A stretch of 34,640 nucleotides of DNA from a bacterium (GTDB lineage Bacteria; Bacillota; Clostridia; Lachnospirales; Lachnospiraceae). Below the pieces are notes generated by a model. That model saw only the letters and a program-made list of their open reading frames with translations, did not search any database and was not told where the DNA came from. The stretch spans positions 1-34,640 of the forward strand of contig JAMPFT010000028.1 in NCBI GenBank assembly GCA_023664305.1. Reading direction: 5' to 3'. Within the stretch, counting starts at the first letter, position 1, and the number at the start of each line of letters is the position of its first letter. The position numbers and the translations under genes are program-made. Below are positions 32,159 through 34,533 of this stretch, piece by piece.

Positions 32159-32923
32159 CTAACCGTGGTTAGACGCATCTGCCCTCCTGGCCTTAATCCC
32201 GTCCAGAATCACCTTCTTCTTTTCCAGAAGCCTGGCCTTATCCATCGCCGGAACCCCCTTCAGCTTATAAGCCATGCCCAGGCTTTCGTACTTCTTTTCA
32301 CCCATCGTATGATAGGGGAGCACATCCAGAGCCTTGAGATTGCCAAACTGACCGATGAAATAACCCAGGTCAAACAGATATTTGTCATCGTCCGTGATAC
32401 CGGGCACCACCACATGCCGGATCCACATATCCACATGCTTTTCGTCCAGATACTCCGCAAATTTCAGAATGTTCCGGTTCGGCTGACTGGTGAGCTCCCG
32501 GTGCTTCTCCGGATCGATATGCTTGATATCCAGCATCACCAGATCGGTCATGCTCATAAGCCGATCCAGCTTTTCGCGCTGAACCGCGCTTTCCGGATTG
32601 TAAGCGATACCGGAGGAGTCGATACAGGTATGGATCCCACGTTCCTTTGCAAGCGTGAACAGATCGATCAGAAAATCAATCTGCATCAGTGGCTCCCCGC
32701 CGGTGACCGTAAGGCCGCCGCCGTTGGCATAAAAGGCGCTGTTCCTCTCATACTGCTCGATAATATAAGACGGCTCCATAAGAGTACCGCCGTTCATCTC
32801 CCAGGTATCGGGATTATGACAGTAAGCGCACCGCATGGGACACCCCTGTACAAACACGACAAACCGCGTGCCGGGACCGTCCACGGTGCCAAAACTTTCC
32901 AATGAGTGAATCCTGCCCTGCAT
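32159..32923 (-). CDS. pflA: pyruvate formate-lyase activating enzyme
   Basis: This 254-residue radical-SAM enzyme makes the glycyl radical on pyruvate formate-lyase. The [4Fe-4S] motif is C28-x3-C32-x2-C35 (GCPMRCAYC). TVTGGEPL near 80 and DIKHIDPEKHRELTS are typical. Length and start (MQGRIHSLESFGTVDGPGTRFVVF) match PflA proteins. AGGAAGGAG is upstream on the minus strand, and the intergenic DNA 32940-33050 contains two TATAAT-like boxes for a minus-strand promoter. pflB, which often precedes pflA, is not in the window; the recombinase segment lies where it might be expected. Confidence 0.93.
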   Translation of the reverse strand: MQGRIHSLESFGTVDGPGTRFVVFVQGCPMRCAYCHNPDTWEMNGGTLMEPSYIIEQYERNSAFYANGGGLTVTGGEPLMQIDFLIDLFTLAKERGIHTCIDSSGIAYNPESAVQREKLDRLMSMTDLVMLDIKHIDPEKHRELTSQPNRNILKFAEYLDEKHVDMWIRHVVVPGITDDDKYLFDLGYFIGQFGNLKALDVLPYHTMGEKKYESLGMAYKLKGVPAMDKARLLEKKKVILDGIKARRADASNHG

Positions 32924-33055: not shown

Positions 33056-33087
33056 GAATGCAACAAAAGATATAATTTGTTGTATTC
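33056..33087. repeat. left 32-bp recombination-site candidate
   Basis: Near-palindrome with 11-bp arms GAATGCAACAA and TTGTTGTATTC around AAGATATAAT. It matches the reverse complement of 34117-34148 at 28 of 32 positions. In the minus direction the hairpin is followed by eight T's (33055-33048), so it can also terminate transcripts running from the recombinase toward pflA. Confidence 0.8.
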
Positions 33088-33505
33088 CTGCCTTACACTA
33101 TCTATTTCGGATGAATCCGAAAAAACTTTAGCCCTGTTTGAAAATTTTTTATATCTTTCTCATTTGCCAGAGTAAATTCTACCCCCATTTATTTCAAATG
33201 CAAAAATTGCTTCGGCAAAAATCCCTTCTCACTTGTCTAACTTCCACCCCTGAGACGCTGCACAGCAGCCTGTTTTGGCGCAGCATAGCTTCCGGAACAG
33301 CAATCGGCGGGAGGCCGTGTCTGTTTTTGCGAACGCTCTGTTGAGATCAGTGTACTGAAAAGACGAAACGTATCTTGAAAGAATATCCGGTATTCCCGTT
33401 GACTTTGATGAATTGTCCGACAAAACATATTATGCTCCGACGAGCATACAGCCTCCCTGCTGACGACCGATGCGACCCTGTCTTGAAAATCGGCCTGTGT
33501 TACGC
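33088..33505. other. segment between left site and recombinase, no supportable gene
   Basis: Short open readings exist on both strands (for example 33428-33237 minus, with GGAG before its ATG) but have no recognisable family. One plus-strand stretch, DETYLERISGIPVDFDELSDK at about 33371-33430, looks protein-like but is cut by stops on both sides. Two perfect small hairpins are present: TTTCGGA-TGAA-TCCGAAA (33105-33122) and TATGCTC-CGAC-GAGCATA (33431-33448). It may be decayed coding DNA. Confidence 0.4.
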
Positions 33506-34090
33506 TTATAACGAAATTTTCAGAAAAACACTGTCCCTGTCATCCTGCTCGATTCCAAGATACCGTTTGGTGATCCGGAAAGAAGAGTGATTGTAGATAT
33601 CCATAAGCAGCACGGAGGACACACCCTGCCGCCAGGCGTGATAGCCGAAGGTCTTGCGGAGAGAATGACAGCTGATATGCCTGCTCATGCCGTTGGCGTC
33701 CGCGGCCTCCCTGATGATACGGAAGGCCTGACTGCGGCTGAGCGGCCGGTTGACGCCCTTCCTGCTGGGGAAAAGATAATCCTCCTCAGAGGGACTTGTC
33801 CGCAGCAGAGAAAAGTAATCCTGCAGCGCGTCGATGACAGCCTGATTCAGGGCGATCTGATTGACCTTTCCCGTTTTCTGCTCCGTAACACAAAGATGTG
33901 AAAAACAGGTCTGCCGGGAAAGGTCGTAGACATTTCCCCACCTTAATCCCAGCAGATCGGAGATCCGCAGGGCAGTATTCAGCCCCATCACGCAGAGGGT
34001 ATAATTTCTGACATTCGTTTTCCCCAGTAGATAATAATCCTTAAAATCCTGTAACTTTTCCGTGTTTCTGATTGGTTCTGCAGCGCTCAT
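33506..34090 (-). CDS. short tyrosine recombinase (candidate DNA invertase)
   Basis: This 194-residue protein is essentially a bare catalytic domain with all active residues: R42 (NTALRISDLLGL), K72 (EQKTGK), H142-x-x-R145 (CHSLRKTFGYHAW), H168 (YNHSS) and nucleophile Y177 (RYLGI). The N-terminal core-binding domain of phage integrases is missing. Small enzymes of this build include FimB/FimE-like and other phase-switch recombinases. GGAGG lies 7 nt before ATG 34090. An extended -10 (TGATATAAT, minus strand, 34136-34128) lies inside the right-hand site, so the enzyme may repress itself when bound. The two inverted sites on either side make site-specific inversion the likely reaction; excision or a mini-element are alternatives. 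Confidence 0.9.
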   Translation of the reverse strand: MSAAEPIRNTEKLQDFKDYYLLGKTNVRNYTLCVMGLNTALRISDLLGLRWGNVYDLSRQTCFSHLCVTEQKTGKVNQIALNQAVIDALQDYFSLLRTSPSEEDYLFPSRKGVNRPLSRSQAFRIIREAADANGMSRHISCHSLRKTFGYHAWRQGVSSVLLMDIYNHSSFRITKRYLGIEQDDRDSVFLKISL

Positions 34091-34116
34091 GCTTTTTCCT
34101 CCATTCTTTGGTCTGC

Positions 34117-34148
34117 GAATACAACATATTATATCAAATGTTGCATTC
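34117..34148. repeat. right 32-bp recombination-site candidate (inverted copy)
   Basis: In reverse complement the arms are GAATGCAACAT and ATGTTGTATTC around TTGATATAAT. Compared with the left site, the innermost arm bases changed together (A/T to T/A), so pairing is kept. The asymmetric centre GATATAAT is shared and sets the opposite orientation. Confidence 0.8.
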
Positions 34149-34230
34149 GAAAGATTGCCGGACGGTGAAAAAGGAAGCGCGTTTCAAACGCAGATTGGCA
34201 GGGAAGCCGGAGGACGGCAGGGAGGTTGAG

Positions 34231-34533
34231 ATGTTAAGACTGACGGTAAGCACGGAAGAGTATTTGATGCTGGGGGACGATATCAAGGTAGTCTTTCTCG
34301 GAGGAACGGGAAAGCACATGCGGATCATGATAGACGCCCCGAAGGATGTAAACATCGTGCGCAGCAGCGTGATCGAGAAAAAGTTCGCTGAGGATCCGGA
34401 GCTGCAGGCAAAGCTTCCGAAATACTACGCCGAGCCGGAAAGACCGATGAAGTACCGGAAAAAGAGAGTAATCGTAACGGGCGCGGCAGGACAGGACAAT
34501 TCCTCCGACCGGCAGTCCCGGGAAGAAAAGTAA
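34231..34533 (+). CDS. csrA: CsrA-like RNA-binding regulator with C-terminal extension
   Basis: This is a 100-residue protein. Residues 1-50 fit CsrA: ML-LT at the start, LGDDIKVVFLGGTGKHMRIMIDAPKDVNIVR with the RNA-contacting R44. CsrA dimers bind GGA in mRNA leaders and control translation, in Gram-positives notably of flagellin. The tail (51-100) is longer than in standard CsrA of 60-75 residues, basic then S/D-rich. ATG 34231 follows GGGAGG; upstream in-frame starts run back into the recombinase region and have no such site. Bases 34149-34230 show no promoter. Transcription may come from the recombinase segment. It reads away from the segment. Confidence 0.75.
   Translation: MLRLTVSTEEYLMLGDDIKVVFLGGTGKHMRIMIDAPKDVNIVRSSVIEKKFAEDPELQAKLPKYYAEPERPMKYRKKRVIVTGAAGQDNSSDRQSREEK

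What the first reader, a model, noticed from the sequence alone, without database searches (positions are those of the whole stretch)
33056..34148. Tyrosine recombinase bracketed by inverted 32-bp near-palindromic sites: candidate invertible DNA switch
Seen: the 32-mers at 33056-33087 and 34117-34148 are reverse complements at 28 of 32 positions. Each is itself palindromic (11-bp arms, 10-bp centre), and two of the four differences are compensatory within the arms. The similarity stops sharply at both ends. The recombinase between them has all catalytic residues but no N-terminal arm-binding domain. Known: tyrosine recombinases recombine such sites, and inverted orientation gives inversion. 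Inference: the 1.03 kb segment with its own recombinase flips. I know of no described switch of this form beside csrA.
Basis: partly seen in the sequence, partly recalled or inferred. Interest (0 to 1): 0.82.

Follow-up and report, generated by a model that had tools for sequence, protein, structure and literature searches.

The report
Self-flipping promoter switch for flagellin
A short stretch of DNA in a gut bacterium carries both an enzyme that can flip it over and a promoter that, in one orientation, would switch on a flagellin operon; relatives carry the same device beside flagellin genes, some of them flipped the other way, so these commensals probably vary a major immune target by DNA inversion.

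Summary
In detail: 28/32 inverted near-palindromes bracket a 194-aa tyrosine recombinase. The reading as an invertible switch is supported and extended. Just inside the left arm lies a sigma28 (flagellar) promoter motif, pointing outward and away from csrA. Relatives repeat the layout arm, recombinase, arm, csrA, flagellin. Of 115 distinct recombinase genes with an arm pair, 110 lie beside csrA or flagellin, and 100 have the outward motif 38-53 bp from an arm's outer edge, against 14 of 2300 shuffles. By this rule 103 of 115 are OFF, the window included, and 4 are ON. Two related genomes carry the segment in opposite orientations relative to csrA, with the switch of similarity inside the arms. 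The six central bases agree between the two arms in 109 of 109 pairs, while centres differ between loci. It works like Salmonella Hin but with a FimB/E-like tyrosine recombinase. Two loci sit between two divergent flagellins. Not shown: flipping of the window's own copy in reads, promoter activity, or which flagellin follows the window's csrA. The open-access literature searched gave no description.

The parts
33056..33087 (.). Left (far-side) recombination arm, 32-bp near-palindrome
   Evidence: the six central bases agree with those of the right arm
34117..34148 (.). Right (csrA-side) recombination arm, inverted copy of the left one
33506..34090 (-). Tyrosine recombinase, 194 aa, catalytic domain only, inside the segment
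   Evidence: PF00589; invariant residues; model pLDDT 91.5
33104..33130 (-). sigma28-type promoter motif TAAA-N15-TCCGAAAT reading outward over the left arm, 48 bp from its outer edge; points away from csrA (predicted OFF)
   Evidence: conserved position in relatives
33088..33505 (.). Segment part between the recombinase stop and the left arm; holds the promoter
34149..34233 (+). csrA leader between right arm and csrA start; no sigma28 motif
34234..34533 (+). csrA, first gene of the switched operon (99 aa)
   Evidence: PF02599
34534..34640 (+). Start of the presumed flagellin leader; the contig ends here
   Evidence: resembles the csrA-flagellin spacer of L002; joining to a flagellin is inferred

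Best explanation
A self-contained invertible sigma28-promoter cassette that phase-varies a csrA-flagellin operon. The recombinase made inside the segment binds the two near-palindromic arms, exchanges strands in the central 6-8 bp and inverts the roughly 1 kb between them. In one orientation the sigma28 promoter just inside one arm reads across that arm into csrA and flagellin (ON); in the other it points away and the operon has no sigma28 promoter (OFF). The window is in the OFF orientation. Shown by sequence: anatomy, conservation, both orientations among relatives, arm-bounded inversion between two related genomes. Inferred: promoter activity, flipping of this copy in cells, which flagellin follows the window's csrA, and that the operon's CsrA acts on the flagellin leader hairpin.
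For: Arms real and unique. Same layout with csrA and flagellin in copy 2 of the same genome. 110 of 115 distinct recombinase genes with arms lie beside csrA or flagellin. Outward sigma28 motif (score >=10 of 12) in 108 of 115, at 38-53 bp from the arm edge in 100; shuffles 79 and 14 of 2300; outward in 97 and inward in 3 of 104 in an earlier set. 0 of 78 loci have such a motif between arm and csrA, 4 of 76 between csrA and flagellin. Both orientations relative to csrA; L217 against L218: with the segment turned, 680 bp at 82.6% and 254 bp at 82.7% run through the arms; unturned, the segment does not align. Centre identity 109 of 109 within pairs; same central 8-mer within a locus 93 of 109, between random loci 129 of 20000. 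ON loci are scattered in the tree.
Against: No reads: flipping of this copy is not seen, and its contig runs through both arms unbroken. L217 and L218 are different species, and their far flanks are not alike. The window's -10 reads CCGAAAT, not the commoner CCGATAT. 44 of 159 recombinase genes have no arm pair by my criterion, among them some beside csrA. L222, in a one-contig genome, has a recombinase before a flagellin with one site and no sigma28 motif, and L262 a recombinase with one site and no csrA. 5 of the 115 have no csrA or flagellin nearby. The contig ends before the window's flagellin.
Confidence: 0.87

Rival explanations
1. The switch is real in the family but locked or decaying in this organism: this copy no longer inverts and its csrA-flagellin operon stays silent.
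For: Four mismatches between the arms; -10 CCGAAAT; contig shows one orientation; some relatives have lost an arm (L262, L222).
Against: The recombinase is intact with its invariant residues; the central six bases agree; CCGAAAT also occurs in copy 2 and in several other loci such as L050 and L154; copy 3 of the same genome shows an assembly break at an arm.
Confidence: 0.15
2. A small mobile element: the arms are the ends of an inserted recombinase-only element that happens to lie before csrA.
For: The far flank differs between loci (L217 against L218); several copies per genome.
Against: 110 of 115 beside csrA or flagellin; a promoter at fixed distance from an arm; both orientations; lone sites before csrA copies without the recombinase (10 of 10, one degenerate) are not clean empty sites.
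Confidence: 0.04
3. The switch serves mainly another output: csrA as a global regulator, or the pflA-like gene that the promoter faces in the present orientation.
For: The promoter now points toward the gene at 32159-32923, about 130 bp beyond the left arm; csrA is the first gene of the operon.
Against: Two loci switch flagellins without csrA; the promoter is of the flagellar type; the far-side gene was not found to be shared (L217 against L218).
Confidence: 0.06

Closest known systems
Salmonella Hin/hix flagellar phase variation
   Same: About 1 kb segment with the recombinase gene inside, short inverted sites, a promoter in the segment that is turned toward or away from a flagellin operon (PMC3798978, passages; that the gene lies inside, the sigma28 dependence and the fljBA operon with a flagellin repressor are recalled).
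   Different: Hin is a serine recombinase that needs Fis and an enhancer; this is an unrelated tyrosine recombinase. Partner gene is csrA instead of fljA.
E. coli fim switch (FimB/FimE, fimS)
   Same: Small tyrosine recombinase without an extra N-terminal domain, invertible promoter; NCBIfam FimB/FimE-type models match at E 6e-15 and 2e-14.
   Different: Scores 55.5 and 54 against cut-offs 221 and 222; in fim the recombinases lie outside the segment and the target is fimbriae (recalled). L031, L041 and L086 do have the recombinase outside.
Clostridioides difficile flagellar switch (RecV)
   Same: Clostridia, tyrosine recombinase, inversion controls flagella (PMC5386303 and PMC7446863, passages).
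   Different: 154 bp with 21-bp repeats in the flgB 5' UTR, no promoter inside, acts through Rho, and RecV also serves other switches; here promoter and recombinase are in the segment and the target is flagellin itself.
Invertible promoters of gut bacteria (invertons)
   Same: Promoter between inverted repeats.
   Different: The 2019 survey could not be opened, so whether any of these loci is listed there is unknown.

Membership tests
Tyrosine recombinase superfamily | PF00589 fold and conserved R, K, H..R, H, Y | tested here: met
   91 bits, cut-off 27.1; invariant in 30; model; XerA 5hxy TMq 0.70
Invertible-promoter phase switch | Inverted recombination sites around a promoter | tested here: met
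   (promoter by motif only)
Invertible-promoter phase switch | Both orientations occur | tested here: met
   Among relatives. Not tested within one population
Invertible-promoter phase switch | Inversion in the living population | not testable with these tools
   No reads; the 55-bp fork at copy 3 is suggestive only
Hin/hix system | Serine recombinase of the Hin family | tested here: not met
   The recombinase is PF00589, tyrosine type
Hin/hix system | Recombinase and promoter inside the segment, flagellin operon outside | tested here: met
   for the window itself the flagellin lies beyond the contig end
fim switch (FimB/FimE) | Curated FimB/FimE family cut-off | tested here: not met
   55.5 and 54 bits against 221 and 222
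C. difficile RecV flagellar switch | Promoterless element upstream of flgB | tested here: not met
   A sigma28 motif inside, csrA-flagellin as target; compared
CsrA family | PF02599 cut-off; NCBIfam CsrA equivalog cut-off | tested here: inconclusive
   Pfam met, 59.9 against 27; NCBIfam not met, 40.1 against 73 and 29.1 against 70.1

The most novel reading that the evidence does not exclude
A genome-wide flagellin repertoire system. The promoter-recombinase cassette not only switches its neighbour: lone sites before silent csrA-flagellin(-glycosyltransferase) operons let it be joined to different flagellins, and each operon's CsrA paralogue then decides, through a leader hairpin with an ANGGA loop, which flagellin is translated. 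Support: 10 of 10 examined csrA copies without a recombinase have a site-like sequence upstream; in L080 the lone site has the cassette's own centre TTTACTAT; tandem silent operons in L259; switches between two flagellins in L178 and L193. Against: in G512 the lone-site centres differ from those of both cassettes, so exchange there should be poor.
Probability: 0.25. Interest if true: 0.92.

Novelty: new variant of a known kind. Interest (0 to 1): 0.8.

Why it matters
If right, flagellin in many Lachnospiraceae, gut commensals whose flagellins are immune targets (recalled), is under DNA-inversion control by a device that reproduces Hin's logic with an unrelated recombinase: a case of convergent evolution. 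It would offer a reason why no promoter was found for some commensal flagellin genes (reported in PMC3720852, passages; I did not check those genes) and why most assemblies here are in the OFF orientation. It makes flagellin expression state readable from DNA, also in metagenomes. Ten full-text searches of an open-access library gave no description of it; three inversion surveys I tried by id are not held, so single loci may be listed there.

Tried and rejected
Mobile element: disfavoured (see rivals). Rfam on L131, L129, L128 and L001 at E<=0.5: one hit, far below its gathering score. The first promoter scan took another place in the window as best because it required A at the last -10 position; with A or T allowed and spacing fixed at 15 the site at 33104-33130 scores 10 of 12. 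Same-species strains in opposite orientation: none found; the closest opposite pairs seen are 77-84% identical in the recombinase. Contig ends near arms (L038 10 bp, L043 16 bp; L257 0 bp, L261 8 bp) hint at assembly forks, but most contig ends are not at arms, and I count this as no evidence. The exact 55-mer at copy 3 is found twice, both next to 100-N gaps; the second branch of the supposed fork was not found.

Rows dropped before counts: L004-L007 (distant recombinases or duplicates of the window); matches under 40% identity or covering under about 140 residues, and identical recombinase genes beyond the first. 44 of 159 have no arm pair by the score; this undercounts, since for example L021 and L029 show a site on each side, and three (L031, L041, L086) have the pair between csrA and recombinase. 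A deep clade of the tree mostly without arms may not belong to this system. The neighbour test looked only 1.5-1.8 kb away, and L137 lies at a contig end.

Full report
Observation. A pattern of the site hits only these two places in the genome. The ORF between them is a 194-aa tyrosine recombinase. Its model (pLDDT 91.5) is closest to XerA among solved structures (5hxy, TMq 0.70), which is also the only PDB sequence match at E<=1e-10. The window is one whole contig, C20 of a 3.58-Mb genome in 44 contigs.

The unit is repeated. The genome holds two further recombinases of this kind, 63% and 55% identical. Copy 2 (L002) has arms of 33 nt (88%) around the recombinase, then csrA, then flagellin; copy 3 (L003) has arms of 29 nt (86%) of another site type, GGTAAC...GTTACC. 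The window's csrA is followed by 107 bp that resemble the csrA-flagellin spacer of copy 2, and there the contig ends; contigs C14 and C21 each have a flagellin start at their very edge. The genome has 7 flagellin and 4 CsrA matches; one flagellin on C40 has a fixed sigma28 motif (TAAACTTATTCGGAATTACTCCGATAT) 233 bp upstream, without a site in 700 bp.

Relatives. A scan of genome contigs found 381 related places and kept the best 80; most of these are titled Lachnospiraceae, some carry other names. In the window's genus 44 of 138 genomes match at E<=1e-45; in an even draw over the family 30 of 397 at E<=1e-40. After removal of identical genes 159 recombinase genes remained, 115 of them with an arm pair of score >=13. 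For these 115, by the side of the best outward sigma28 motif (score >=9) and the neighbour: csrA on the start side of the recombinase, motif past its end, 93; csrA past its end, motif on the start side, 10; csrA past its end, motif past its end, 3; csrA on the start side, motif on the start side, 2; flagellin on both sides 2; no csrA or flagellin 5 (L040, L132 which is copy 3 as assembled, L137 at a contig end, L159, L161).

The promoter. The sigma28 consensus for Butyrivibrio used by Neville et al. 2013 is TAAA and MCGATAa (PMC3720852, passages). The motif TAAA-N15-NCCGATAW lies inside the segment and reads outward over one arm at a nearly constant distance: score >=10 of 12 in 108 of 115 loci, and 38-53 bp from the arm's outer edge in 100; in dinucleotide shuffles 79 and 14 of 2300. 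In an earlier set of 104 loci 97 had it outward and 3 inward. In the window it is 33104-33130 on the minus strand, 48 bp from the outer edge of the left arm; copy 2 has it at 48 bp too. Between arm and csrA 0 of 78 loci have one of score >=10; between csrA and flagellin 4 of 76 (L018, L019, L037, L052), none of them with an intact CCGATA. So for these loci the only sigma28 motif for csrA-flagellin is the one in the invertible segment.

Orientation. By that rule 103 of 115 loci are OFF; 4 are ON (L022, L189 which is the same place as L109, L085, L207); 1 is unclear (L147: equal scores on both sides; treated as start side, which would make it OFF); 2 lie between two flagellins; 5 have no flagellar neighbour. 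Assemblies show the majority state only. In a tree of 155 recombinases the 13 with the promoter on the start side need one change (support 88/84), and the ON loci are spread: L022 near L023, L189 near L188 and L165, L207 with L096 and L206, all OFF; L085 with the unclear L147. L217 (G033) and L218 (G511) show the inversion itself. With the L217 segment turned, 680 bp at 82.6% and 254 bp at 82.7% run through the arms on both sides; unturned, only flank pieces of 212 and 49 bp and a 37-bp arm piece align. MAFFT gives 1100 against 823 identical columns. The csrA-side outer half-site (GAATCTGTTAC) is with csrA in both. They are different species and their far flanks beyond the extended arm are not alike.

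Crossover zone. Over 109 arm pairs, identity between the arms of a locus is 1.00 at the six central positions (-3 to +2), 0.62-0.69 at -7, -6 and -4 in the outer half, 0.97-1.00 at -10 to -8, 0.90-1.00 through the inner half to +13, and 0.23-0.38 at 16-18 bases out on either side. The central 8 bases agree within a locus in 93 of 109 and between random loci in 129 of 20000; there are 83 different centres. This is the pattern expected of a recombinase that needs an identical overlap within a pair. The pairs were chosen by similarity, which raises the general level but should not favour the centre over the outer half.

Variants. In L031, L041 and L086 a segment of about 0.18-0.45 kb with its own arms lies between csrA and the recombinase, which is outside, as in fim; the motif inside reads away from csrA (scores 9, 9 and 11). 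In L193 (flagellins of 597 and 459 aa) and L178 (492 and 491 aa) the switch lies between two divergent flagellins and no csrA, so flipping would alternate them. Of the 36 csrA places in 24 genomes, 8 have no recombinase place beside them (G513 five, G512 two, G088 one); with L080's second csrA and the one at C11:708 in the own genome, all 10 have a site-like sequence upstream, one of them degenerate, and none has a motif of score >=10 in up to 600 bp; for L257, L261 and L129 only about 110 bp or less next to csrA is readable, so for these absence means little. The main csrA on C40 has no site. Counterexamples: L222 (one-contig genome) has a recombinase before a flagellin with one site and no motif, and L262 has a recombinase with one site and no csrA.

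CsrA. In 68 of 72 distinct csrA-flagellin leaders an ANGGA lies in the loop of a hairpin of at least 5 bp, against 2 of 76 reversed leaders. With the strict rule (pairs closing directly on the NGGA loop, at least 4 bp) it is 59 of 72, and stem positions 4-6 change on both sides while staying paired (for example CG, TA, GC; 59, 57 and 57 of 59 paired). An ANGGA in a hairpin loop is the known form of a CsrA target, and CsrA represses flagellin translation in B. subtilis (first part recalled; second cited in PMC3720852). That the cassette's CsrA binds there is inference.

Assembly trace. In copy 3 a 55-bp stretch, from the inner edge of the csrA-side arm into the csrA leader, occurs twice in the genome, each time abutting a run of 100 N. 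A de Bruijn assembly with k=55 would end contigs like this at a fork, as expected if two sequences follow that arm in the reads. The second branch was not found, so this is suggestive only.

Literature. Ten full-text searches listed no paper on a flagellin inversion switch in Lachnospiraceae. I saw passages, not whole texts, of PMC7446863 and PMC5386303 (C. difficile), PMC3720852 (no occurrence of recombinase, integrase or phase), PMC7278147, PMC11868660, PMC3798978 (Hin) and PMC8987985. Three inversion surveys are not held.

Verdict. By comparative evidence a real switch, of a known kind (invertible promoter) in a new combination: FimB/E-like tyrosine recombinase inside the segment, sigma28 motif, csrA-flagellin as target, spread over the family and present in several copies in some genomes. 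Function in cells remains to be shown.

Noticed in passing
L002 and other flagellin leaders, about 21-110 bp before the flagellin start: Hairpin showing ANGGA in its loop, with a stem that changes in matched pairs, in 68 of 72 leaders: probably a CsrA site.
   Followed up: partly
L193:2884-4244 and L178:2643-3775: The switch lies between two divergent flagellin genes without csrA; in L178 each flagellin is followed by a similar glycosyltransferase-like gene.
   Followed up: partly
L259:2310-15149: Tandem csrA-flagellin(-glycosyltransferase-like) operons, each with a lone site and no sigma28 motif; three csrA copies in one contig.
   Followed up: partly
L041, L086, L031 (upstream of the recombinase): Small invertible-type segments with the recombinase outside, as in fim, before the same csrA.
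   Followed up: partly
G000:C11:708616-708670 and 812908-812962: Identical 55-mers ending at an arm and abutting 100-N gaps: looks like an assembly fork at copy 3.
   Followed up: partly
window 32159-32923: pflA-like radical SAM gene about 130 bp beyond the left arm; in the present orientation the sigma28 motif points at it.
   Followed up: no
L040:4891-5686: Arms and a strong outward sigma28 motif (12 of 12) but no csrA or flagellin within 1.5-1.8 kb: unknown target.
   Followed up: no
L165 (G047:C2:258500-275000): Three complete switches with csrA and flagellin within about 12 kb.
   Followed up: no
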